Source: a virus
Length of the DNA stretch: 24,266 nt
IMG/VR virus record: IMGVR_UViG_3300035666_000157
Location: 1-24,266 of that record
Reading direction: 5' to 3' (one strand)
The notes beneath the pieces are model-generated. The model was not told the origin of the DNA, ran no database searches, and worked only from the letters and a program-made list of their open reading frames with translations. Of this stretch, positions 5,595 to 24,266 are shown one piece after another. How positions within the stretch are numbered: position 1 is the stretch's first letter; each line of letters begins with the position of its first letter. The position numbers and the translations under genes were made by a program.

Positions 5595-6179
5595 ATGCCG
5601 CACAAAGATCCTGAAGCACGGAAAGCATACGTAAAGGCGTATGCGGAAAAACGTCGCTTGGAACTAAATGCGTATCGTAAAGAGTGGAAGGCCGCTAATA
5701 AAGACAAGATGGCTGTGTACGACAAAAAGTACAAAGAAAAGAAAGGCGAGGCTTTTGCACTGGAACAAAGATTGCGTACAGCTAAATGGCGTGAGCAAAA
5801 TTTGGAAAAAGTACGGGTTTCCAACAGAGAGCGCGCAGCTAAAAAGCGTGCGCAACAGCCTGAAAAAATTAAAGCGGCAAAAAAACTGTATGCCCAAAGA
5901 AACAGAGCTGTACTTAACGCCGCAGCAGCACGAAGGAAAGCGGCTAAGTTGAAACGTACCCCAAAGTGGCTTACAAAGTTTGACAAGCTAAAGATTAAGT
6001 GTGTTTACTCAATAGCAGCAATGCTTACTCGTGTAAACAATGAGCCGTGGCATGTAGACCATATCATTCCGTTGCAAGGAGATTTTGTCTCCGGTTTGCA
6101 TACGCCTTCAAATTTGCAAGTTATGCTCGGCGTTGAAAACGTACGCAAGCATAAGAAGTTTGAGGTAGTGCATGGCTAA
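5595..6179 (+). CDS. HNH homing endonuclease, free-standing
   Basis: 194 residues. Residues 1-120 are an extremely Lys/Arg/Ala-rich helix (PEARKAYVKAYAEKRRLELN), likely the DNA-contacting arm. The C-terminus carries the HNH core: WHVDHIIPLQG at 152-162 with catalytic His156 and metal-type Asp155, a second His at 169, Asn173 in TPSNLQ, Asn182, and a closing VRKHKKF (Lys185-His186). It would cut DNA, probably nicking a relative that lacks the insert to promote its own spread. It lacks a convincing ribosome site and is AT-richer than its neighbours: counted by hand, 5701-5760 is about 42% GC against about 65% in 5341-5400. It begins three bases after the adaptor gene and overlaps the zinc-ribbon gene by eight bases, fitting a mobile insertion between two structural genes. 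Confidence 0.85.
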   Translation: MPHKDPEARKAYVKAYAEKRRLELNAYRKEWKAANKDKMAVYDKKYKEKKGEAFALEQRLRTAKWREQNLEKVRVSNRERAAKKRAQQPEKIKAAKKLYAQRNRAVLNAAAARRKAAKLKRTPKWLTKFDKLKIKCVYSIAAMLTRVNNEPWHVDHIIPLQGDFVSGLHTPSNLQVMLGVENVRKHKKFEVVHG

Positions 6180-8059: not shown

Positions 8060-9490
8060 ATGCCATCGTCATATACCACCAGTCTTCGCCTGACGCTTCC
8101 TGCTACGGGCGAACTTGGAGGCCAGTGGGGCAACACCGTAAACACAGGCATTACAGAACTTCTGGATGCAGCGGTTGCGGGTACGGCGACAATTTCTACC
8201 TGGGGTGGCCCTGGGGTTTCGTACACCCTGAGCAACAATTCTGGCACTGCGGATGAAGCCCGCAAGATGTTCATCGTGGCAACGGGCACGCCTGGGGAAG
8301 CCAAGAACGTCATTTGCCCTGCTGTGAGCAAGATGTACGTGTTCAGGAATGACACGACTGGTGGGTATGCGCTGACGCTGAAAACCTCTGGCGGTACGGG
8401 TGTGTCCGTGCCTGCGGGCCAGTACAAGTTCCTGTACTGCGATGGGACCAATGTGGTGGAGGCGGTGAACTCCCTTGGCCCTGTGGCCGCGCTATCGACC
8501 TCGCAGGCGGTGTTTACGGACGGCTCCAAGAACTTGGTGTCCAACCCGATTACGGGCACGGGCAACGTGGTCATGTCGGCAAGCCCGACGCTGACAGGCA
8601 CGGTCGCTGGTGCTTCATTGCAGTTGTCGTCGCTGACCTCTGGGCGGGTAACTTACGCGGGCGCTTCGGGGCTGTTGCAAGACTCCACCAACCTGACGTT
8701 CGATGGGACGGCGCTGACCTTGGGTGGGAACCCAACGCTTTCAGCGGGCACCGCCAACGGCGTCCTGTACCTCAACGGCAGCAAGGTAGCGACGAGCGGG
8801 AGTGCGCTGACGTTTGATGGGAATACGCTGGCAGTAAGCCGCAACGCAAGCTCTGCAACGATAGACATTAATGCTTCGGATACTACATCCACTTCGTATC
8901 TGCGGCTGCAAGACTTTGGCACTACTCGCGCTTGGTTTGCAAGTTACCGTGACGGCTCAGGGAAAACAGAACTTCTTGGCAACGGATTTTTGCAGTTTTC
9001 GCTTGGCGGCGGCGCTTCTCCTTCCGAACAAATGTGCCTCACCAGCACCGGGCTGGGGATTGGGATGAGTTCGCCGGGGTACAAACTGGATGTAACCAAA
9101 GACGCCAACTCTTTTACTGGCGCACGTTTTAGAAACAACGATTCAGGCTCAAGTGCTTATTCGGGCGTTGTAGTTAACGCTTTTGGCAATAGTTGGGCCA
9201 TGCGGATGGGGTCAACTGCCGCAAACAGCAATGCACTTCAATTTGTACAGGACGCACTTGGCACACCTGTAGTGAGGGCAACGCTGGATACCTCCGGCAA
9301 CGTCATTGCAGGAGGCTCGGTAGCACTCGCCACCACCGCTACAGACGGCTTCCTCTACGTTCCCACTTGTGCGGGAACTCCGACCGGCGTGCCCACTGCC
9401 ATCACGGGCATGGCACCCATCGTGGTCAACACCACGAACAACAAGCTGTACTTCTACTCTGGCGGCGCTTGGCGTGACGCTGGACCCTAA
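8060..9490 (+). CDS. Tail fibre protein
   Basis: 476 residues. The N-terminus (SSYTTSLRLTLPATGELGGQ and WGNTVNTGITELLDAAVAG, residues 3-41) is the conserved virion-attachment start of many environmental phage fibres. The body is a long Ser/Thr/Gly/Ala-rich repetitive beta region with blocks like LTFDGTALTL, NGVLYLNGSKVATSG and LTFDGNTLAV. Residues about 335-355 contain LGIGMSSPGYKLDV, a motif found in many fibre proteins. The C-terminus has APIVVNTTNNKLYFYSGGAW, a common terminal module. The role is receptor binding. ATG 8060 has GAGGT seven bases upstream. Downstream follows a small protein that usually travels with such fibres. I see no chaperone domain or autoproteolytic motif. Confidence 0.85.
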   Translation: MPSSYTTSLRLTLPATGELGGQWGNTVNTGITELLDAAVAGTATISTWGGPGVSYTLSNNSGTADEARKMFIVATGTPGEAKNVICPAVSKMYVFRNDTTGGYALTLKTSGGTGVSVPAGQYKFLYCDGTNVVEAVNSLGPVAALSTSQAVFTDGSKNLVSNPITGTGNVVMSASPTLTGTVAGASLQLSSLTSGRVTYAGASGLLQDSTNLTFDGTALTLGGNPTLSAGTANGVLYLNGSKVATSGSALTFDGNTLAVSRNASSATIDINASDTTSTSYLRLQDFGTTRAWFASYRDGSGKTELLGNGFLQFSLGGGASPSEQMCLTSTGLGIGMSSPGYKLDVTKDANSFTGARFRNNDSGSSAYSGVVVNAFGNSWAMRMGSTAANSNALQFVQDALGTPVVRATLDTSGNVIAGGSVALATTATDGFLYVPTCAGTPTGVPTAITGMAPIVVNTTNNKLYFYSGGAWRDAGP

Positions 9491-9508: not shown

Positions 9509-9832
9509 ATGCAATGGAAAATCAGTAGTTTGGACCACACTCTTCCCGAGTGCTGCGTAACCACTGCCCACTGGCGTGTATCAAAGACCGACGGCGCAGC
9601 CACAGGCAGCGTCTACGGCAAGATCTCGTTGCCCCACAAGGATCACGACGCCCCCGACTTCATTCCCTACGACCAACTCACCGAGGCGCAAGTCGTGGAG
9701 TGGGTCAAGGACGAGATGGGGGCGAACCAAGTCGCTGCGTACGAGGCCGCAGTGCAAGGGCAAATTGACGCTCAAGTCAACCCCACCAGCGCCGCTGGCG
9801 TGCCATGGTCATCCGCCCAGCAAGCGGCCTGA
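9509..9832 (+). CDS. Small fibre-associated protein, DUF7936-like
   Basis: 107 residues. The sequence HTLPECCVTTAHWRVSKTDG, VYGKISLPHKDHDAPDF, YDQLTEAQVVEWVKDEMG and a C-terminal IDAQVNPTSAAGVPWSSAQ follow the recurring phage pattern of a small beta domain followed by a helical half. In other phages such proteins sit just after fibre genes. The catalogue name DUF7936 is from memory and should be checked. The ribosome site AAGGA lies before ATG 9509. The last 28 bases overlap the next gene in another frame. Confidence 0.75.
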   Translation: MQWKISSLDHTLPECCVTTAHWRVSKTDGAATGSVYGKISLPHKDHDAPDFIPYDQLTEAQVVEWVKDEMGANQVAAYEAAVQGQIDAQVNPTSAAGVPWSSAQQAA

Positions 9833-10062
9833 CGGCTTGGGTGCTGCGCCGCACCGGCTTTGGTGGGGTCACCTTGCCGTGGGGCATTCGCATATTGCCT
9901 GAGCGGTTGCATGACGAGCCCCTGCGGCGGCATGAACTGGAACATGCGCGGCAGATTGAGCAGTACGGCGTGATCGGCTTTTACGCTCGGTATGCGTGGT
10001 ACACGCTGCGCCACGGTTACCGCAACAACCCGCTTGAAGTTCAAGCACGAACCAAGGAGTAA
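9805..10062 (+). CDS. Tiny putative zinc metallopeptidase-like protein (HELEH)
   Basis: 85 residues. RRHELEHARQIEQYGVIGFY contains HELEH at 43-47, the HExxH form of zinc metallopeptidases, and NPLEVQAR supplies Glu78 as a possible third ligand (gluzincin-like spacing of about 31 residues after the second His). The rest is aromatic-rich (YARYAWYTLRHGYR). The protein is far smaller than typical peptidases, so it may be a minimal domain or an inactive relative. ATG 9805 overlaps the preceding gene by 28 bases and has no clear ribosome site; GTG 9841 is an alternative in-frame start that would remove 12 residues and the overlap. It sits just before the holin and endolysin, so a lysis role is conceivable, but this is inference. 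Confidence 0.6.
   Translation: MVIRPASGLTAWVLRRTGFGGVTLPWGIRILPERLHDEPLRRHELEHARQIEQYGVIGFYARYAWYTLRHGYRNNPLEVQARTKE
10054..10059 (+). promoter_or_regulatory. Ribosome binding site deciding ATG 10067
   Basis: AAGGAG lies seven bases before ATG 10067 and overlaps the end of the previous gene. The upstream in-frame ATG at 9992 has no such site. Confidence 0.6.
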
Positions 10063-10066
10063 ACAC

Positions 10067-10237
10067 ATGAACCCCAACACCAAAATTGAACTCACCCTGG
10101 GCCTTGTGAACGGCATCCTGGGCTACCTCGGCACCCGTCCCTACGGCGAAGTGTTCCAGATCGTGCAGGAGATCCAAACGCAAGCCGCCCCGCAGGTGCC
10201 CACCCCGGACCCGGCCACCGAACCCGTGAGCAACTAA
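10067..10237 (+). CDS. 56-residue helical protein in the lysis region
   Basis: The start at ATG 10067 is chosen over the longer in-frame ATG 9992 because of a perfect AAGGAG and because the longer form would overlap the HELEH gene by 71 bases. The protein is MNPNTKIELTLGLVNGILGY, then LGTRPYGEVFQIVQEIQTQA and a Pro-rich acidic end (PTPDPATEPVSN). The first 35 residues are an amphipathic helix; there is no full transmembrane span, signal peptide or lipobox. Small proteins of this type recur before holin genes in related phages. The function is not known to me. Confidence 0.7.
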   Translation: MNPNTKIELTLGLVNGILGYLGTRPYGEVFQIVQEIQTQAAPQVPTPDPATEPVSN

Positions 10238-10238
10238 C

Positions 10239-10736
10239 ATGCTTGACATCCTCGGTGGGGGCCTGCTGGGCTCCATCTTCGGAGGGCTGTTCCGGCTGGC
10301 CCCTGAGGTGCTGAAGTTCTTGGACCGCAAGAACGAGCGTCTGCACGAACTCAAAATGTTCGAACAGCAGTGCCAACTGGAAAGCATGCGCGGGGCGCAG
10401 AAGTTGCAGGAGATTGGCGCTCAGCACGGTATGGCCGTGGATGTTGGCGTGTTGGACGCGTTCAAGTCAGCGCTGGACCAGCAGACCGAGATGGTCAAGG
10501 TCGCAGGCGGCTGGGTCGCTTCGCTCAGCGCTTCGGTGCGCCCGGTGGTCACCTACTGGATTCTGTTCATCTGGTCGTTCGTGCACATCTGGTTTGCCTG
10601 GAACGCTTGGCTGCAAGGCATGCCGCCAGTGGAAGTGTTCAAGACCGCCATGTCGCCTGACTTCTCAGCGCTGGTGGCGGGGACGATTAACTTCTGGTTC
10701 CTTGACAGGGCCTTGAAAGCGCGGGGGCTTGCGTGA
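10239..10736 (+). CDS. Putative holin, three-TM GTA-type
   Basis: 165 residues. A hydrophobic N-terminal segment (about 4-24, Gly-rich, LGGGLLGSIFGGLFRLAPEV) is followed by a charged amphipathic helix (30-80). A strong membrane segment follows at 101-125 (RPVVTYWILFIWSFVHIWFA) and a third hydrophobic stretch at 143-159 (SALVAGTINFWFLD) ending in the basic RALKARGLA. The RP..TYW..F and NFWF..R landmarks and topology match the 3-TM holin family described from gene transfer agents (GTA_holin_3TM). It would form inner-membrane pores that free the endolysin. It lies one base after the previous stop and overlaps the endolysin gene by four bases (GTGA), as lysis genes commonly do. I see no dual-start motif of the lambda S type. 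Confidence 0.7.
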   Translation: MLDILGGGLLGSIFGGLFRLAPEVLKFLDRKNERLHELKMFEQQCQLESMRGAQKLQEIGAQHGMAVDVGVLDAFKSALDQQTEMVKVAGGWVASLSASVRPVVTYWILFIWSFVHIWFAWNAWLQGMPPVEVFKTAMSPDFSALVAGTINFWFLDRALKARGLA

Positions 10737-11215
10737 ATCTCGACTTGGCCGTTGCGCTGTGCAAGCAGTTTGAGGGACTGCATCGGGTCGGCAAGGACGG
10801 CCTGATCTACCCTTACGTCTGCCCCGCAGGCTACCCCACCATTGGCTGGGGCACGGTTTACAAGCCGTCGGGCAAGAAGGTGACGATGGAAGACCCGCCC
10901 ATCACCCGTGAAATTGCGGACGCGTGGCTCATGGATGAACTCCAGCGGGTGTGCGCTTCGGCAGTGGTGCGGCAATGCCCTGAGTTGTTTGCCTGGAGCC
11001 TCACCAACGGCAACTGGCGTGCCTTCTGCGCCATCGCAGACTTCACCTACAACCTGGGGACAGGTAGACTCCAGACCTCCACCCTGCGGCGCAAGCTCCG
11101 CGCACTTGACTGGGAAGGTGCCAAGGAGCAACTGGCGCTGTGGGTGCGCGGTGGGGGCAAAGTACTGCCCGGACTTGTGAAGCGTCGTGCCGCAGAAGCG
11201 AAACTGTTGGGGTAA
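10733..11215 (+). CDS. Endolysin, GH24 T4-type lysozyme
   Basis: 160 residues from GTG 10733 in a GTGA overlap with the holin gene. Glu14 in FEGLH is the predicted catalytic acid. The loop YVCPAGYPTIGWGT supplies Cys30 where T4 lysozyme has Asp20, and Thr36. Replacement of that Asp by Cys is common in endolysins of this group, so activity is not necessarily lost. Further landmarks are the C-terminal helices with WRAFCAIADFTYNLGTG, the TLRRKL segment, and LPGLVKRRAAEAKLL, matching the usual end of the fold. It cleaves the beta-1,4 bond of peptidoglycan. I see no signal-anchor or signal peptide, so export depends on the holin. Length is normal for the family. Confidence 0.9.
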   Translation: MNLDLAVALCKQFEGLHRVGKDGLIYPYVCPAGYPTIGWGTVYKPSGKKVTMEDPPITREIADAWLMDELQRVCASAVVRQCPELFAWSLTNGNWRAFCAIADFTYNLGTGRLQTSTLRRKLRALDWEGAKEQLALWVRGGGKVLPGLVKRRAAEAKLLG

Positions 11216-13081: not shown

Positions 13082-14436
13082 TGCCGTTCCTCACCACACT
13101 CATCAAGCGGTTCACCGCCCCGGCGCTACCTAACGCCACGCAGGAGTACGACCAGAGATACTTTGACAAGTTCAACTCCATCCTGCGTCTGTACTTCAAC
13201 CAGCTTGATCAACTTCTGGGGCAACTTGTGTCTACCTCCTCAACTGTTCCAGTTTCAATCGGCGGGACAAACGTAGATGCGTTCGGCCGCCTGCGGACAA
13301 GCTCTCCCTACACGCTGTTTGATTCTCAAAATCGTTACGAGAAGAACGATCTGTTTAGCGAGACCACCGCTACAGGCGGCACGGTCACATATGACGCCAA
13401 TGCAAGCACAGTTGAACTAAACGTCACAGCTACTTCAGGTAGCGAGGTTGTACGGCAAAGTTACCGCTCGTTCTCGTATCAGCCCGGTAAGGGCCTATTG
13501 GTGTTCAACACCTTTGTGATGGGCGCGGCCAAGACCGATCTGCGTATGCGGGTCGGTTACTTCAACACACAGAACGGCGTGTTCCTTGAGCGCTCTGGAA
13601 CGGACATCAAGATTGTTCGCAGGACTTACACCTCGGGCGCTGCGGTGGACAACCCTGTCCTTCAGGCAAACTGGAACGGCGACAAACTTGACGGGACCGG
13701 AGACTCTGCGATCACCCTTGATTTGACCAAAGCCCAGATCCTTTGGATGGACTTTGAATGGCTGGGGGTGGGATCTGTCCGGGTGGGGTTCGTGATTGAT
13801 GGGCAGTTCATCGTCTGCCACACCTTTGAGAACGCGAACAACCTGACCTCGGTCTACATGACCACCGCTATCCTGCCGGTGCGCTACGAGGTCACAAACC
13901 TCAACACAACGGCATCGGCCAGCACCTTTAAGCAAGTTTGCTCATCGGTCATCTCCGAGGGCGGATACGAGAAGAAGGTTGCGCCGTTTGTGGCCCGCAT
14001 GACCACGGTCAACTCAAGCATCGGCACAAGTTTTGTCCCCTTGGTTTCGATTCGCTTGGCATCAGGCAGGACTGGCGCAGTTGTCATTCCTGATGGATAC
14101 TCCGTGCTACCGACCTCTTCAGGTTCAACGACCTTTGAGATCGTGCTTGTCAAGAACCCGACCCTCACAGGAGCCTCCTGGGGCGCAACGGACTCCAACA
14201 ATGTCGAGCGCGATCTGTCAGCAACGTCCTTCACAGGTGGGACGATCATTGAGTCTCAGTACGTCTTGTCCTCAAACCAAGCGCGGGCGCTGGTTACGGG
14301 CGGGTCGGATTACAACTGGGACTTGCAACTCGGTGCCACCATCGGCGGAACGAGTGATATCTACACCGTGGCTGCGCGGACAACGAGCGGTACGCAGAAC
14401 GCTATCGCCAGTTTCTCTTTCTGGGATCTGACGTAA
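13081..14436 (+). CDS. Virion structural protein, beta-rich, 451 residues
   Basis: ATG 13081 overlaps the previous stop by one base (TGATG). The N-terminal 65 residues are helical (EYDQRYFDKFNSILRLYFNQ). A conserved junction NVDAFGRLRTSSPYTLFDSQ follows, then a jelly-roll-like beta domain with RQSYRSFSYQPGKGLLVF, GVFLERSGTDIKIVRRTY and QILWMDFEWLGVGSVRVGFV. The C-terminal half is Thr/Ser/Val-rich. This layout resembles phage proteins with lectin-like beta domains that decorate the capsid or tail; similar proteins in marine phages have been labelled only structural. No catalytic triad or membrane segment is seen. It is placed between the nozzle-like protein and the large internal-type proteins. 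Confidence 0.8.
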   Translation: MPFLTTLIKRFTAPALPNATQEYDQRYFDKFNSILRLYFNQLDQLLGQLVSTSSTVPVSIGGTNVDAFGRLRTSSPYTLFDSQNRYEKNDLFSETTATGGTVTYDANASTVELNVTATSGSEVVRQSYRSFSYQPGKGLLVFNTFVMGAAKTDLRMRVGYFNTQNGVFLERSGTDIKIVRRTYTSGAAVDNPVLQANWNGDKLDGTGDSAITLDLTKAQILWMDFEWLGVGSVRVGFVIDGQFIVCHTFENANNLTSVYMTTAILPVRYEVTNLNTTASASTFKQVCSSVISEGGYEKKVAPFVARMTTVNSSIGTSFVPLVSIRLASGRTGAVVIPDGYSVLPTSSGSTTFEIVLVKNPTLTGASWGATDSNNVERDLSATSFTGGTIIESQYVLSSNQARALVTGGSDYNWDLQLGATIGGTSDIYTVAARTTSGTQNAIASFSFWDLT

Positions 14437-16946
14437 TGGCAGCGCCTCTTTACACAACACTTACTTCTGGCTCATCTGCTGGTGATATTGCTGCTGCGTA
14501 CAACGATTTCATTTCTGGACGCGGTGGTGACACGCAGGCCAATCAAGCAGAAGCAATTAATTTTCTGCAAGGGCTTGGCATAACATCTGGAACGATTGAC
14601 TCTGCGTACGATATATACAAGTCATCATTTGGGGCTCCTGCCCCTACTGCGGCCCCTGCTCCGCCTCCTACCGATGCACCTGCCTATCAAGCCCCCGCCT
14701 ATCAGGAACCGACTTACCAAGACTACTACGACATAGACAGGTATCAACCGGAGACAAACTGGGACTACATCACTAACGTAGTCAACCCCACACTTGCTCC
14801 CACACCTGCTCCGACCCCGGCACCTACGGCGGCACCAACTGCCGCTCCAACTAGTCCGCAATTTGTATTTGCTGAAAACGCAGATCAGTTAGGTTTTTGG
14901 TCTCAGCCCGCAAGTTCTGAGACGGGAGAAGCCGCAAGTTGGCAACCAGGAGATGGTCAATGGCTACAAGAGACGCAAGCGGGCCTTCCAGCAGGGTTTA
15001 AGGCTGCGGTAAAACAAACTCCAGGAGATGGATACACCGATACAACATACGCAATTTTTGGGCCTGACGGCAAAAAAGTACAAGAACAAACAGTCAGGTA
15101 TGAGCAGCAAGGACTTGGGGGCCTGCTTCGGGAAAGCGCAAAAGATCTTGCGCCATTGGCGCTTATGGCGCTTGGTATGCCAGGGGCAGAAAGCCTTGGT
15201 GCAACGCTAGGTTCTTCAGTTGCCAACACCCTTGGTATTCAAGGACTTAGTGCGGCACAAACGGCGGCTCTTGGGTCAGCGGTAGGCGGTGCGGGTGTAG
15301 GGTTGGCGCAAGGCCAAGACCCGTTGGATGTGCTGAAAACTGCGGCGGGATCGTATTTGGGCTCCACACTGAGCAGCCTTGCGCCCACCAATATCACTGG
15401 TGTGCCTGTTGTGGATAAAGCACTGTCCGCCGCAGCGTCATCAGGGATAAAAGCAGCGGTAACTGGCGGCGATGCTGGGCAAGCGCTGATGAGTTCGTTG
15501 ACCGGCTCGTTGACTGGCGCAGCAAGCAATACCGTAGCAGATGTGCTTGGGATCGACCCAAAACTTCTGAATGCAGGCATATCGCTTGTACAGGCAGGAG
15601 AAAACCCACAGGCGATCTTCAATGCTATTGTCGGTACAGCAAAAGCAACGGGTATTGATAAGCCAGCAACCAAAGTTGCAGAAGCAGGACAAGGATCACA
15701 GGACTTTTACACAGCGTTGCTAGATGCTTTTGGTCAGCCACAAGATACTGGCGTTGATTCCGGTACGCAATATGCTTCGTCAGAGCCTATTGTTGTCAGC
15801 GGCGTGCCTATTGGTGCGTGGAATGCCTCAAAGATTGCACCGGACTTTGTAGCGCCCGCTGGCACACGTTTGGCTACCGTTGAAGAGTTTGAAAGTGGCG
15901 CTGCTAAGTACGATGCAGAGCGTGATGCGTGGCTCATGCCTACAACGAATACTATTCGTGATATTGGCAATGTCACCAAAATTGACCCCTCGACTGAGTT
16001 GACACTTTTATCTGGCATGACTCCAGAGGGTTTTTATCTGGAAGATACAGATGCAACTTTGAACGATATTCTGTCTAGTGTTCAGCCGACAGATCAACCT
16101 TTGCTGCAAACAGATCAATCGGATCTTGATGCGCTGTTGAATGCTGCGGCCAATATGGGTGCTTCAACCGGAGCGCCTGCCGACCAAGTTATCACAACAA
16201 CGGGGCGGAAAGACAACCTAGAAATTGATCCGTGGTTGCAACCGTTTGTTAGCGATCCACGGTATGTTCAAGTAACTGAAGGCGAAGTTCAGCAGATTCC
16301 TGTTACTGGAACAAAACTGAAAGAAGATGGAGTAGTCATACCGGAATGGGACATTCTTTCTGAGCCTGTACCAACCCCGGCTCCGACTCCCGCCCCAACA
16401 CCGGCCCCAACACCGGCACCGACCCCTGCTCCAACTCCGGCACCCACGCCTACCCCGACTCCCGCACCAACTGCTGCACCAACCGCTGCCCCAACACCGG
16501 CCCCGACACCTGCACCTACTCCTGCGCCCATTGCGCCACCACCCGGAGTAATTGAAGGGCCGTCAACTATTGAAGTGACTGGAACTCGGCCAACGCCTGA
16601 GCCCACGTTGCCTCCCGTCACTCCTGAACCTACGCCAGCCCCAACACCGGCCCCGACACCCGCTCCCACTCCTGCGCCTACGCCCGCTCCGACACCGGCA
16701 CCCACTCCGGCCCCCACACCGGCACCAACTCCGGCACCCACGCCAAGGCCCACACCGAAGCCCACAGCGGCACCGTCTCCGCAGATAATCCAAACAGGGG
16801 CACCAGGGGGGCCAACCGTCCACAACCCCATCATGGCGCAGGTGGACCCGTATGACTTAGACAGGTTGTTCTCACTGCTACCCAGAGAAACGACCTTGGA
16901 AGAACTGATGCAAATCATCCAGGCGGGTAACCGCCGTAGGAGTTAA
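14436..16946 (+). CDS. Large protein with two PTPA linkers, putative internal virion protein
   Basis: 836 residues, ATG 14436 overlapping the previous stop (TAATG). Residues 1-65 are helical ([20 protein letters not shown]). Residues 66-130 are Pro/Ala/Tyr-rich ([15 protein letters not shown], then PTPAPTPAP). About 220-410 is a Gly/Ala-rich hydrophobic helical region ([20 protein letters not shown]) with glycine-zipper-like spacing suited to membrane insertion. About 440-640 is a mixed domain. Two long PTPA-repeat blocks follow at 646-703 and 730-779, divided by TIEVTGTRP, and a short helical tail ([20 protein letters not shown]). VTGTK and VTGTR motifs flank the linkers. Given size, composition and position beside other such genes, it may be an ejected internal protein, but this is inference; a tail or fibre protein is the alternative. 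Confidence 0.7.
16371..16544 (+). repeat. PTPA repeat block 1 (12-base period)
   Basis: An in-frame repeat encoding Pro-Thr-Pro-Ala units, with a few variants (PTPT, PTAA). Codons within the repeat vary freely (CCA, CCG, CCC, CCT; ACC, ACT, ACA), so the amino-acid pattern is kept more strictly than the DNA pattern. It predicts an extended, protease-resistant linker of polyproline type. Confidence 0.85.
16623..16773 (+). repeat. PTPA repeat block 2 (12-base period)
   Basis: A second in-frame PTPA array, opening as PEPTPAP and closing with basic variants [11 protein letters not shown]. It is separated from block 1 by about 26 residues containing IEVTGTRP. It is the same kind of linker, with a slight positive charge at its C-terminal end. 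Confidence 0.85.
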
Positions 16947-20700: not shown

Positions 20701-23700
20701 ATGGCTGGACGCGACTTCAGCGCTGAACTGTTTGGGCCTTCAGCGGGGCGAGACTTTAGTGCTGAGTTGTTCGGGGCTAAGCCACCTGAGAAACAAAGCG
20801 CCTTCCGTCAGATTGCAGACGTACCTCTCGGCATAGCCAAGGGTGCTGTCCAAGGTGTCCGCATGATTGCGGATGCTTTCGGTGCTGGGTCTGATACATC
20901 CAACACCATCAAGTCAGCAGAGACGTACCTTGCTGATCTGATGTCGGCCCAGGCTAAGAACGACCAGCAGGAAATCTCGCGCATCATGAAGGATGCCGAG
21001 GACAAGGGCGTGCTGGATCAGGTAAAGGCAGGTATCAAGGCGTTCACTGTCGCACCTGTAGATACGCTGTCCAGTGCTTTGGGGACTGCTGCGCCTGTTA
21101 TCGCTGGCGCTCTTGGGGCCAAAATTCTCGGTGCGGGTGCGTTGGTATCAACAGGGGTGAGTGCCCTGACTGGTGCCGGTATGGGCGCTGGCGTGGTCAA
21201 GGGTTCTATCTACGAAGAGACAAAACGCACACTGAAAGAAGCAGGCGCTTCTGAGCAGGACGCAGAGGCTCGTGCAAAACTTGCACAAGAGTACGGCGGC
21301 AAGAACCTTGACCAAATTTTGCTGGGCACGGTGCTAGGTGGTGCTGCTGCTGTTGGTCCTTTGGAAAAGGGTGCAGCGGGTATTCTTGCCCGCAGGATTC
21401 TTGGCAAGACCGAAGGTGCTGAGACTGTTGCGGAGCAAGCGGCCAAAGGTGCTGTGCGTAGGCGCTTGGAAGCCGGTGCGCTGGAAGCGGTGCCTGAAGC
21501 GGTGCAAGCAGGGCAAGAGCAAGTAGCACAGAACATCGCTCTTCAACGGGAAGGGTTTGATGTACCTACGTTCCGTGGTGCGTTTAGTTCTGCTACGTTG
21601 GAAGGTCTTGCTGGTGCTGGGCTTGGTGCTGCGGTTGGTGGTGGTAAGCCTGCTGCTGCCCCCGAGGTGCCGCCTGTTCCGCCTGTAGCTCCGCCTCCTG
21701 TAGCCCCGCCTCCTGCTGCGCCCGAGGCAGAAGCGCCTGTTGCGGCTCCGCCTGTTCCGCCTGCCGGTCCTACGCCAGAAGAATTGGCACGCATTCAAGA
21801 TGAGCATGAGACTGCCATCATCGAAGGTCTGATTGCCCAAGACGTTGAAATGGCGCGGGCGAAGCAGCTTGCAGAACAACGCGCTCAAGAACAAAGCGAA
21901 GCAGAGTTCCTTGAGTCTGGCATCAAAGAAACTGACCGCCGTGTCCGCGAAGGCCGCATCTTTGCCCGCGTGCAGGATTTGATTGACCGCAACATCCCGT
22001 TTGCCAGCACGGCCATCAATGACATCAACCAAAAATTTGGTGTCATCAACGAAGCCCCGCTGACCGAGGAAGAGCGGGCGCGTGTAGAAAACATCATGGG
22101 CATGGTGAGCACGTTCACTAATTTTGTGAATTTGCCTGTGCTTGCGCCTAAGCCTATGGACCCGTTTGCTGAGAACCAGCAGATGGAAGCCCTTATCAGA
22201 GAAAGGACAGAACGTGGACAAGCCCAGCCCGTACGAACAGCGCCTGCTGCGCCAAGCCCGAGCGTCCAAGAAACTCCCGTCAGCCAAGGAGTTGGCGAAG
22301 GTCCAGCCGTACGACCGCCGAGTGGCGTTGAGCCTAGCGTTGCGGAAGATAGTGAACTCGTAACTCCTGCTCCGGTGGTAGAAGCCGCTGCGCCTGTGGT
22401 GGAAGAGCCCTCAGTAGAAGCGCCTGCACCAAAAGTTGGTGATTTGGTAAAACTTACAGTCCCCGGCGTGGGTGGACCTATCGGTCGCGCAGGAAAGATT
22501 GAACGACTTTTGCCAAATGGTGATGTTGAGATAAGAACTCAACAAGGCGAGATTGTTAGTAAAACACCAGAACAGGTGACTGTTGTAACGCCCGCGCCTA
22601 CTGCGCCCAAAGCAGAAGCGCCTACGGCAAAGCCAGCAAAAGCTGCCGCTATCCGCAAGCAGCCTAATACTGTTATGGGCTCAACCATGCTGGCCGATGT
22701 CAGCAATCGGCTTGGCGGACTTGATCTGTCTCTGTTGTCTGAGTTCTCCACAAAATTTATCACCAAGCGCAAGGACAAGTACGGTCGCCCATTGACCATG
22801 TGGCGCAACCCGATGGTTTCAGGCGTTGGCACTCTGTTCCGCAAGGGAGGCGAGAGTGACTACGTTCTGATTGCCACCATGCTAGAAGAAGCCGGATACC
22901 TTGAGCCGGGTTCTGTTGAGCGTGATTACAAAGAAGCCGGTGAACGCGCCAAGGACATGATCAAGGCGGCGCTCAACCGCGAGGAAGTTTTAACGCTTGA
23001 GCAGCAAGAAAGTCAAAGGCAAGCCGACGAAGAAGCAAACCGTCAGGCTTGGCTTGAGCAACAAGAAGAACTAAAGGCTGAGCGTGACAACGCGGCGCGT
23101 GAAGCTGGCTTGACGCCCTATGAAGGTGACTTGCTTACGGATGAAGACATTGATGTGTTTGCGCCTGCTAAGCCGCAGACAGATGAGCAATACGCAGCAG
23201 CAATGCGTGGGCTTGGATTTGACGAAACGGAGATAGCAGATGCAGTCCAAAAGAAGCAAGAGAGAGAACGTGCTCAGAAAACTGCTCCAGGCCGACCCGC
23301 AGAAGCGAGAGCGGTTCCTAAAACTGGAGAGGGCACTGAGGGGCTTGAGAGATACACCGCCGAAGAAGTAACTCGTAAACAAGAAGAAGCTGAGAAAGCC
23401 GCTGCCGAGGAAAAGAAAGCCAAGGCCGCTGAGCAAGCACGCCTGCAAAAAGAGCAGCGCGAGAAAGAAGAGAAGACTCGTGCCGATGAGTCTTCGAAGG
23501 ACTTTGAGCTTGGCAAGAGCGCAGAAGAACAGATGACCGGCATGGGCGATCTGTTTAAGGGCGAGAAAAAATCTCTTGGCGGAGAGCGTGCGCAAGTACA
23601 AGCCTTTGAGCAGACCCTACGCAGTCTCCTGAACAAGTTTGGCCTGAAAGATGTGGGCCTGAAGATTCTGGACGGGATGACTGATTCCGGCTCCTATGCC

Positions 23701-24266
23701 GCGCAGATCGTCAAAATTGCCGCTGATGCCGCGAACCCCGTTCGGACTCTGCGCCACGAGGCCATCCACACCCTGCGAGAACTGGGCTTCTTCACTGATG
23801 CACAGTGGAAATCCCTGTCCAAGATGGCAAAGGGCAAGTGGATTGACCAGTACCTCAAGCAAAGGAACGTAGACGGCAAACCCCTGAAGGCAGGGGAAGA
23901 ATCCCGGTATGACGCTTACATGCGTGAGTACAACGGGGACATGGAGAAGATCACCGAAGAAGCGGTGAGCGATGCCTTTGCTGACTTCGATGCCACGAAG
24001 CCGCCCGCTGGGATGCTTCAGGCTTTGCTCAAGCGGATGAAGGACTTGTTCCAGTCCATCAAATCTGCGCTTACGAAGGTTGAATCACCTGAGCAAATCT
24101 TTGGCAAGGTTGAGAAGGGTGAACTAAAGGAAGGAGCACGCGAGGCCAAGGGCGAAGCAAAGAGCCTGCGTGACAGGGCTACCGCTAACTTTAAGCGCTG
24201 GTTTGGTGACAGCAAAGTAGTGGATGAGAAGGGTGAGCCGCTGGTGGTGTACCACGGGACGGATGA
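20701..24266 (+). CDS. Giant polyvalent protein: HEAIH metallopeptidase plus start of an ART domain (partial)
   Basis: At least 1188 residues, open to the window edge. ATG 20701 has AAGAGGT upstream. Tandem AGRDFSAELFG repeats are at 2-12 and 15-25. Hydrophobic Gly/Ala helices at about 113-165 and 205-225 may touch membrane. Pro/Ala linkers (about 320-360) and long Glu/Lys/Gln coils separate an SH3/KOW-like segment (VGDLVKLTVPGVGGPIGRAG, about 580-620), a helical domain with WRNPMVSGVGTLFRKGGESD (about 700-770), and a metallopeptidase-like part: RHEAIHTLRELGFF with HEAIH at 1019-1023 and EEAVSDAFADF at 1086-1096 as possible third ligand. FKRWFGDSKVVDEKGEPLVV and YHGTD (1164-1188) match the opening of the ADP-ribosyltransferase domain of polyvalent proteins (ART-PolyVal); its catalytic remainder is beyond the window. 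It is probably injected with phage DNA to modify or process host targets; the substrate is unknown. Confidence 0.8.
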   Translation, partial: MAGRDFSAELFGPSAGRDFSAELFGAKPPEKQSAFRQIADVPLGIAKGAVQGVRMIADAFGAGSDTSNTIKSAETYLADLMSAQAKNDQQEISRIMKDAEDKGVLDQVKAGIKAFTVAPVDTLSSALGTAAPVIAGALGAKILGAGALVSTGVSALTGAGMGAGVVKGSIYEETKRTLKEAGASEQDAEARAKLAQEYGGKNLDQILLGTVLGGAAAVGPLEKGAAGILARRILGKTEGAETVAEQAAKGAVRRRLEAGALEAVPEAVQAGQEQVAQNIALQREGFDVPTFRGAFSSATLEGLAGAGLGAAVGGGKPAAAPEVPPVPPVAPPPVAPPPAAPEAEAPVAAPPVPPAGPTPEELARIQDEHETAIIEGLIAQDVEMARAKQLAEQRAQEQSEAEFLESGIKETDRRVREGRIFARVQDLIDRNIPFASTAINDINQKFGVINEAPLTEEERARVENIMGMVSTFTNFVNLPVLAPKPMDPFAENQQMEALIRERTERGQAQPVRTAPAAPSPSVQETPVSQGVGEGPAVRPPSGVEPSVAEDSELVTPAPVVEAAAPVVEEPSVEAPAPKVGDLVKLTVPGVGGPIGRAGKIERLLPNGDVEIRTQQGEIVSKTPEQVTVVTPAPTAPKAEAPTAKPAKAAAIRKQPNTVMGSTMLADVSNRLGGLDLSLLSEFSTKFITKRKDKYGRPLTMWRNPMVSGVGTLFRKGGESDYVLIATMLEEAGYLEPGSVERDYKEAGERAKDMIKAALNREEVLTLEQQESQRQADEEANRQAWLEQQEELKAERDNAAREAGLTPYEGDLLTDEDIDVFAPAKPQTDEQYAAAMRGLGFDETEIADAVQKKQERERAQKTAPGRPAEARAVPKTGEGTEGLERYTAEEVTRKQEEAEKAAAEEKKAKAAEQARLQKEQREKEEKTRADESSKDFELGKSAEEQMTGMGDLFKGEKKSLGGERAQVQAFEQTLRSLLNKFGLKDVGLKILDGMTDSGSYAAQIVKIAADAANPVRTLRHEAIHTLRELGFFTDAQWKSLSKMAKGKWIDQYLKQRNVDGKPLKAGEESRYDAYMREYNGDMEKITEEAVSDAFADFDATKPPAGMLQALLKRMKDLFQSIKSALTKVESPEQIFGKVEKGELKEGAREAKGEAKSLRDRATANFKRWFGDSKVVDEKGEPLVVYHGTD
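20704..20775 (+). repeat. Tandem N-terminal AGRDFSAELFG repeat
   Basis: Two 33-base coding units at 20704-20736 and 20743-20775 encode the same 11 residues but differ at most third positions (CGC/CGA, TTC/TTT, AGC/AGT, GAA/GAG, CTG/TTG). The peptide is therefore conserved by selection rather than by recent duplication. Confidence 0.85.

What the first reader, a model, noticed from the sequence alone, without database searches (positions are those of the whole stretch)
9805..10062. 85-residue HELEH protein at the entrance of the lysis cassette
HExxH at 43-47 plus Glu78 makes a minimal gluzincin-like pattern in a protein far smaller than known peptidases. It precedes the holin and endolysin and overlaps the fibre-follower gene by 28 bases. 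If folded and zinc-binding, it could be a minimal peptidase acting on envelope or virion proteins. A second HExxH motif exists in the polyvalent protein of the same genome.
Basis: partly seen in the sequence, partly recalled or inferred. Interest (0 to 1): 0.5.

Follow-up and report, generated by a model that had tools for sequence, protein, structure and literature searches.

The report
Optional tiny zinc-enzyme gene in phages
A real 85-residue phage protein carries the conserved zinc-binding core of a very small metal-dependent peptidase, sits as an optional extra gene between tail-fibre and cell-lysis genes, and belongs to a widespread family whose function is unknown.

Summary
In detail: window 9805-10062 encodes 85 aa with HELEH at 43-47 and Glu78, overlapping the upstream gene by 28 nt. 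It is a real gene: dN/dS is about 0.1. His43, Glu44 and His47 are kept in 135 of 136 aligned sequences and Glu78 in all 136 (about 113 distinct). AlphaFold2 puts the HExxH on one helix and Glu78 at the start of the last; the nearest solved folds are mostly gluzincins, weakly matched.

It is PHROG 37302 (function unknown), a shortened relative of Pfam eCIS_core (DUF4157). The window protein alone misses that model; family members bridge to it. "Far smaller than known peptidases" is overstated: mini-gluzincin chains of 105-108 residues are solved.

An endolysin lies close downstream in 44 of 73 testable viral loci. But only 8 of 80 loci chosen by the next gene carry it, and in 37 of 53 the flanking genes sit together without it. 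So it is accessory.

Best guess: a late mini-metallopeptidase that reaches the envelope at lysis and cleaves a host protein. Zinc binding, activity, substrate and that role are inferred. Moderate-to-low interest.

The parts
9805..10062 (+). 85-aa mini-gluzincin-like protein (PHROG 37302; eCIS_core/DUF4157-related)
9931..9945 (+). HELEH: His43, Glu44, His47 (predicted zinc ligands His43 and His47, catalytic Glu44)
   Evidence: chemistry inferred from the zincin families
10036..10038 (+). Glu78 in GYRNNPLEVQAR, predicted third zinc ligand
   Evidence: kept in 136 of 136 aligned sequences; start of helix 76-83
9805..9832 (+). 28-nt out-of-frame overlap with the DUF7936 gene, consistent with translational coupling
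   Evidence: exactly 28 nt in 24 related loci and the window
9509..9832 (+). upstream gene, DUF7936 / phrog_7802, 107 aa
10067..10237 (+). 56-aa ORF (cluster c5), next downstream; the marker used for the empty-site comparison
10239..10736 (+). holin-like protein, phrog_6637
10733..11215 (+). endolysin, Phage_lysozyme (GH24 type)

Best explanation
The ORF encodes a mini-gluzincin: a single DUF4157/eCIS_core-related zincin domain cut down to a strand, a helix, a two-stranded element, the HExxH helix (ligands His43 and His47, base Glu44) and a C-terminal helix with the third ligand Glu78. It is an accessory late gene, placed seamlessly between the DUF7936 gene and the next small gene of a fibre-to-lysis gene row and probably translated with them. 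The mechanism I think most likely: it is made late without a signal peptide, crosses the inner membrane through the holin lesions together with the endolysin, and cleaves one or a few host envelope proteins so that lysis or release is faster or surer in some hosts. This would parallel VgrG2b/Tpe1-type DUF4157 peptidases, which are toxic only in the periplasm and showed no peptidoglycan hydrolase activity. Shown here by computation: gene reality, residue conservation, fold class, kinship, optional placement. Inferred: zinc binding, proteolysis, periplasmic site, role in lysis.
For: Purifying selection. HExxHxxQ and the later Glu kept in viral and cellular relatives, including 30 of 30 found by profile rather than by motif. 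Predicted fold with pLDDT 81.7; gluzincins lead the VIA-align list. Bridge to eCIS_core. An endolysin within 2.6 kb downstream in 44 of 73 testable viral loci, 7 of 11 lineages, of GH24 type in 37 and M15 type in 7. Precedent: the DUF4157-type domain of VgrG2b is a gluzincin, harmless in the cytoplasm, lytic in the periplasm, dependent on its HExxH (PMC6899460, passages read).
Against: 29 of 73 testable viral loci have no GH24 or M15 endolysin within 2.6 kb downstream by these profiles, and five lie beside terminase and/or connector genes, so a lysis role is not general. Most related lysis modules lack the gene. No signal peptide is evident (by eye), so export is assumed. For the M95 mini-Glu-zincin no activity was detected when it was described (PMC3890501). 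Foldseek finds no significant PDB match and the VIA-align Z values are 4.0 or less.
Confidence: 0.36

Rival explanations
1. It serves the tail fibre or virion: a processing peptidase or zinc-bound chaperone for the upstream fibre/spike, or an injected virion protein, in line with the loading, maturation or chaperone roles proposed for DUF4157 in contractile injection systems.
For: In the window it follows a fibre-like gene and DUF7936; tail spike/fibre genes lie directly upstream in L041 and L048/L049; in L074 and L077-L082-type loci it lies among tail genes without a lysis gene close downstream. DUF4157 chaperone/loading proposals: PMC8213781 and PMC11297309, passages read.
Against: Loci with the same fibre-DUF7936 arrangement mostly lack it; five loci lie beside terminase and/or connector genes instead.
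Confidence: 0.27
2. It acts in the cytoplasm on a host or competitor protein (host take-over, counter-defence or exclusion), and its place in the late region is just a tolerated insertion site.
For: Accessory, patchy distribution and several insertion contexts; no signal peptide evident by eye.
Against: Late-operon placement recurs; no match to PADLOC models for five family proteins, which hold defence, not counter-defence, families.
Confidence: 0.2
3. It binds zinc but is not a peptidase: a structural or binding protein.
For: No activity was detected for the first mini-Glu-zincin (PMC3890501); for one DUF4157 effector, Cgo1, growth inhibition was reported as independent of the metalloprotease motif (cited in PMC11297309). 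One relative, L092, has lost HExxH.
Against: Glu44, which is not a zinc ligand, is as invariant as the ligands.
Confidence: 0.14
4. The ORF is spurious and HExxH is a chance motif.
For: Short; HExxH arises in about 1% of shuffles.
Against: 228 viral stretches encode a relative, dN/dS about 0.1, invariant motif.
Confidence: 0.01

Closest known systems
PHROG 37302 (phage protein family, unknown function)
   Same: Window protein matches over residues 3-83, E 2e-15; 48 of 48 alignment members match at E <= 0.1.
   Different: Nothing; this is its family, but it has no assigned function.
Pfam eCIS_core / DUF4157 (PF13699)
   Same: HExxHxxQ helix and the strands before it; 16 of 48 members match at E <= 1, best 1.8e-9; L113 matches positions 1-76 at 41 bits; profile comparison probability 89 over 38 columns.
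   Different: The window protein itself has no match even at E <= 10; it is shorter before the HExxH and carries a GY..NP.E.EAR motif after it, beyond the end of the 79-position Pfam model. A profile of viral members only compares weakly (probability 19).
VgrG2b C-terminal domain / Tpe1 type VI secretion effectors (DUF4157-type gluzincins)
   Same: HExxH plus a Glu third ligand at the top of a later helix, small domain (PMC6899460, passages read).
   Different: No sequence match was found by me; those are delivered by T6SS and come with an immunity gene; ligand spacing differs (HExxH 935-939 and Glu983 there).
Mini-gluzincins abylysin (4jiu) and selecase (4qhi, 4qhj)
   Same: Minimal gluzincin scaffold, 105-108 residues; VIA-align Z 3.2 and 2.4.
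   Different: Archaeal, slightly longer, no sequence kinship shown; Z values low.
Gluzincin domains of anthrax lethal factor and BlaR1
   Same: Share the core fold weakly (Z 4.0 and 2.9).
   Different: Much larger proteins; resemblance of fold only, no kinship by sequence shown.

Membership tests
PHROG 37302 | Match to the family profile over most of its length | tested here: met
   positions 13-94 of 98, E 2e-15
Pfam eCIS_core / DUF4157 | Score of the protein itself above the curated cut-off (22 bits) | tested here: not met
   No match at E <= 10 for the window protein. Three of ten other proteins scanned singly pass it: L111, L093, L094
Pfam eCIS_core / DUF4157 | Kinship through intermediates | tested here: met
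   L113 spans both; hhalign A3 vs A6 E 2e-6, helped by the bridging members in A3; viral-only profile weak
Pfam eCIS_core / DUF4157 | Location in or near an eCIS operon | tested here: inconclusive
   No eCIS gene was recognised near the window gene in the genes scanned, but not every gene of the window was scanned and the contig is partial
Gluzincin, subclan MA(E) | HExxH with conserved Glu in the motif | tested here: met
   135 of 136 sequences
Gluzincin, subclan MA(E) | Glu as third ligand on a later helix | tested here: inconclusive
   Glu78 invariant and at the start of a helix in the model, but distances could not be measured
Gluzincin, subclan MA(E) | Zincin fold | tested here: inconclusive
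   Model with pLDDT 81.7; gluzincins lead VIA-align, Z 4.0 or less; Foldseek vs PDB not significant
Gluzincin, subclan MA(E) | Zinc binding and peptidase activity | not testable with these tools
   needs purified protein
VgrG2b/Tpe1 effectors | Periplasm-dependent, Glu-dependent toxicity with a cognate immunity gene next door | not testable with these tools
   The small gene downstream is common without this gene, so it is unlikely to be an immunity gene; toxicity needs a bench test

The most novel reading that the evidence does not exclude
Tailed phages carry, as an optional cassette at the fibre-lysis boundary and elsewhere, one of the smallest self-sufficient gluzincin peptidases (85 residues), which cleaves a host envelope protein during lysis: a lysis aid that is neither muralytic enzyme, holin nor spanin.
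Probability: 0.2. Interest if true: 0.65.

Novelty: new member of a known kind. Interest (0 to 1): 0.33.

Why it matters
If active, this would be among the smallest metallopeptidases and a handle on what DUF4157 domains do, which is an open question in contractile injection systems. Natural pairs of phage gene rows with and without the gene, at an otherwise matching junction, make its role testable by a simple deletion in a cultivable relative. If inactive, it is one more uncharacterised accessory gene.

Tried and rejected
Peptidoglycan endopeptidase role: thought unlikely, because an endolysin of GH24 (37 loci) or M15 type (7 loci) lies within 2.6 kb downstream in 44 of 73 testable viral loci and VgrG2b showed no peptidoglycan hydrolase activity in its authors' assays; not excluded. 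Spanin substitute as a general rule: rejected, because Rz-like genes co-occur in 14 of 80 viral loci. Peptidase-immunity pair with the 56-aa next gene as a general rule: rejected, because only 8 of 80 loci chosen by that gene show the peptidase gene (six of the 80 hold under 400 nt upstream, so a few absences are untestable). Core lysis or fibre gene: rejected for the same reason; of 53 loci where both DUF7936 and the 56-aa gene were placed, 7 have the gene, 37 lack it with a gap of -16 to +52 nt, and 9 lack it with a larger gap.

Sequence searches of the PDB with family profiles or members gave no relevant match. Foldseek against the PDB gave no match at E <= 0.001. VgrG2b was not among the rows, which excludes nothing. 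Isolated phages: 2 records with the window protein; with three other members the same 2, plus 2 weak uncultured records in one search. Plasmids: 4 weak matches, E 0.004-0.7. NCBIfam: nothing convincing. PADLOC: none for five members at E <= 0.1. Papers: no paper holds phrog_37302 and none holds HExxH, phage and 'lysis cassette' together; DUF4157 with phage gave 21 papers, of which I read passages in four. Alignment A5 was wrong for two reverse-strand rows and was replaced by A6.

Limits. The viral relatives are the best 80 of 228 and the c5 loci the best 80 of 420, so proportions describe those samples, which hold repeats: 136 aligned sequences give about 113 distinct stretches, and the 80 viral ones 58. 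At least three of the 30 profile-found cellular matches repeat genes of the other cellular set (L124/L093, L125/L094, L138/L111). Relatives were confirmed by tblastn with the window protein, which itself favours a kept motif. Gene picking was greedy and missed or mis-called some short genes (in the window it put a reverse-strand ORF over the holin and endolysin); conclusions rest on the profile searches. Endolysin profiles covered GH24 and M15 only. dN/dS used 25 sequences of one lineage, first ten codons left out; the largest of 262 pair values was 0.47. The group labelled 80 shows 81 because L089 fell into it too; L007, L008 and the window are in none of its groups and were read.

Full report
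What is there. ORF 9805-10062 (+) encodes 85 residues from an ATG. HELEH is at residues 43-47 and Glu78 at 10036-10038. The start lies inside the end of ORF 9509-9832, overlapping by 28 nt. That upstream gene is DUF7936/phrog_7802 and follows a 476-aa gene (8060-9490; phrog_31104, unknown function) whose blastp cluster includes a protein with tail-fibre matches (L028). Downstream are a 56-aa ORF (10067-10237), a holin-like protein (10239-10736, phrog_6637) and a GH24-type endolysin (10733-11215).

Is it more than chance. On its own HExxH is weak: about 1% of shuffles of this protein contain it (2294 of 200000). But the protein has many relatives: 228 viral stretches encode one, of which the best 80 were kept, and 23 loci come from cellular genome contigs. 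Within the window's lineage dN/dS against the window is 0.07-0.12 where dS is not saturated; the median over 262 pairs is 0.14, the largest 0.47 (25 sequences). Because one of the two scan patterns contained HExxH, I looked at two sets less open to that bias. Of 68 loci whose sequence matches only the other pattern, 67 keep HExxHxxQ; the exception is L092. Of 30 cellular matches found by profile in genomes without names, all 30 keep it, at least three of them repeating genes of the other cellular set. Over 136 aligned sequences (about 113 distinct) His43, Glu44 and His47 are kept in 135 and Glu78, Gln50 and Tyr72 in all (window, L007 and L008 read).

Fold. AlphaFold2 with the 48-row alignment A3 gives mean pLDDT 81.7 and pTM 0.66: strand 3-5, helix 9-17, strands 21-24 and 27-30, helix 38-54 with the HExxH, helix 56-70, helix 76-83 with Glu78 near its start. 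Foldseek against the PDB finds nothing at E <= 0.001. The VIA-align second look over 78 chains is led by gluzincins: the lethal factor catalytic region (Z 4.0, 80 residues, rmsd 4.3), abylysin (3.2, 59 residues, 2.9), BlaR1 (2.9, 65 residues, 3.1) and selecase (2.4, 72 residues, 6.4), with ArdC at 3.2. The tool warns that Z values this low can mean only a common arrangement, so I rest the fold class on these together with the conserved residues. In BFVD the best match is an 81-residue phage protein named DUF4157 domain-containing (E 5.7e-7, TM 0.83, 42% identity). Side-chain geometry could not be measured.

Kinship. The window protein belongs to PHROG 37302, unknown function, and has no Pfam match at E <= 10 and no NCBIfam match at E <= 1 by itself. 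Of 48 family members, 16 match Pfam eCIS_core (DUF4157) at E <= 1, best 1.8e-9, and three of ten proteins scanned one by one pass its 22-bit cut-off (L111, L093, L094). A Methylotenera protein (L113) is a bridge: it matches eCIS_core positions 1-76 at 41 bits and continues with GYQNNPYEIEA as this family does. Profile comparison of A3 with seven classical eCIS_core proteins gives probability 89 and E 2e-6 over 38 columns, helped by the bridging members in A3; with a viral-only profile it is weak (probability 19). So this is a diverged, shortened relative of DUF4157 rather than a textbook member. Matches to A3 were found in 32 of 99 and 24 of 101 genomes around two cellular genomes that have one, so the family is not mainly viral.

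Genome context. In the window's lineage the order fibre, DUF7936, HELEH gene, 56-aa gene, holin, endolysin recurs, with the 28-nt overlap exact in 24 related loci; in 21 further loci the overlap with the upstream gene is 4 nt. Of 80 viral loci, 73 could be judged for an endolysin within 2.6 kb downstream: 44 have one, in 7 of 11 lineages, and 29 do not by the GH24 and M15 profiles. In L053, L054, L058, L059 and L085 the gene is near terminase and/or head-tail connector genes, and in others it lies among tail genes.

The decisive comparison is the reverse one. Choosing loci by the 56-aa downstream gene (best 80 of 420), only 8 show the HELEH gene, all on contigs already found, while 63 show an endolysin, 60 a holin-type gene and 54 DUF7936. 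Six of the 80 hold under 400 nt upstream. Of 53 such loci where both DUF7936 and the 56-aa gene were placed, 7 have the HELEH gene, 37 lack it with a gap of -16 to +52 nt between the two, and 9 lack it with a larger gap. These look like natural empty sites: in six of the seven the HELEH gene accounts for 228-234 nt between the two flanking genes (911 nt in L155, which holds more). Hence neither lysis nor fibre assembly in these phages depends on it in general. Which state is ancestral was not tested.

How it most likely works. Conservation of Glu44 together with the ligands argues for catalysis. No signal peptide or membrane helix is evident by eye, so if it acts in the envelope it must leave through the holin lesions, as the endolysin is expected to do. 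A well characterised DUF4157-type domain, the C-terminal part of VgrG2b, is a gluzincin with Glu983 as third ligand, is harmless in the cytoplasm, toxic in the periplasm in a Glu-dependent way, and showed no peptidoglycan hydrolase activity, though no substrate was identified (PMC6899460, passages read). I therefore favour a lysis-time envelope peptidase (0.36), with a fibre/virion role (0.27), a cytoplasmic role (0.20) and a non-catalytic role (0.14) as rivals. In eCIS the DUF4157 role is itself unsettled; toxin loading, maturation, trafficking or chaperoning have been proposed (PMC8213781 and PMC11297309, passages read), and in Streptomyces a DUF4157 protein is a CIS effector whose toxic activity maps to another domain (PMC11126660, passages read).

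Compared with what is known. The claim that it is far smaller than known peptidases needs trimming: mini-gluzincin chains of 105-108 residues are, and Trame et al. (PMC3890501, abstract and passages read) describe the mini-Glu-zincin and mini-zincin scaffolds, adding that no activity had been detected for the former at the time. This protein is roughly 20 residues shorter. It is a new, functionally open member of a known kind.

Noticed in passing
window 10067-10237; loci L153-L232: The 56-aa gene (c5; 420 viral relatives) is a common, unnamed part of a DUF7936-c5-holin-endolysin module in many phages; no family match above chance was found for it.
   Followed up: partly
window 23755-23769 in ORF 20701-24264 (runs off the contig): HEAIH motif followed by a Glu-rich stretch in the long polyvalent-type protein; not compared with the 85-aa protein by profile.
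   Followed up: no
window 5595-6179: 194-aa ORF ending in an HNH-like stretch (HVDHIIPLQGDFVSGLHTPSNLQVML), apparently a homing-type endonuclease within the structural genes; label recalled, not searched.
   Followed up: no
window 14436-16946: 836-aa ORF with long runs of APTP repeats.
   Followed up: no
L089 and L090: Nearly identical family proteins and gene neighbourhoods in contigs filed under a Bacteroides MAG and an Azovibrio MAG, probably a binning error in one.
   Followed up: no
L092 (Amnimonas aquatica), 224-469: The one relative that has lost HExxH (AAKMKR in its place) while keeping GYRNHPYEVEAR.
   Followed up: partly
L095-L109: In Nitriliruptoraceae the domain sits at the C-terminus of longer chromosomal proteins with hydrophobic N-terminal stretches, near genes whose products look like a tRNA synthetase and DivIVA/SepF-type division proteins (labels by eye).
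   Followed up: no
L093, L094, L098: Gemmatimonadota relatives follow a shared 778-aa-type gene (cluster c61), of ComEC-like look by eye.
   Followed up: no
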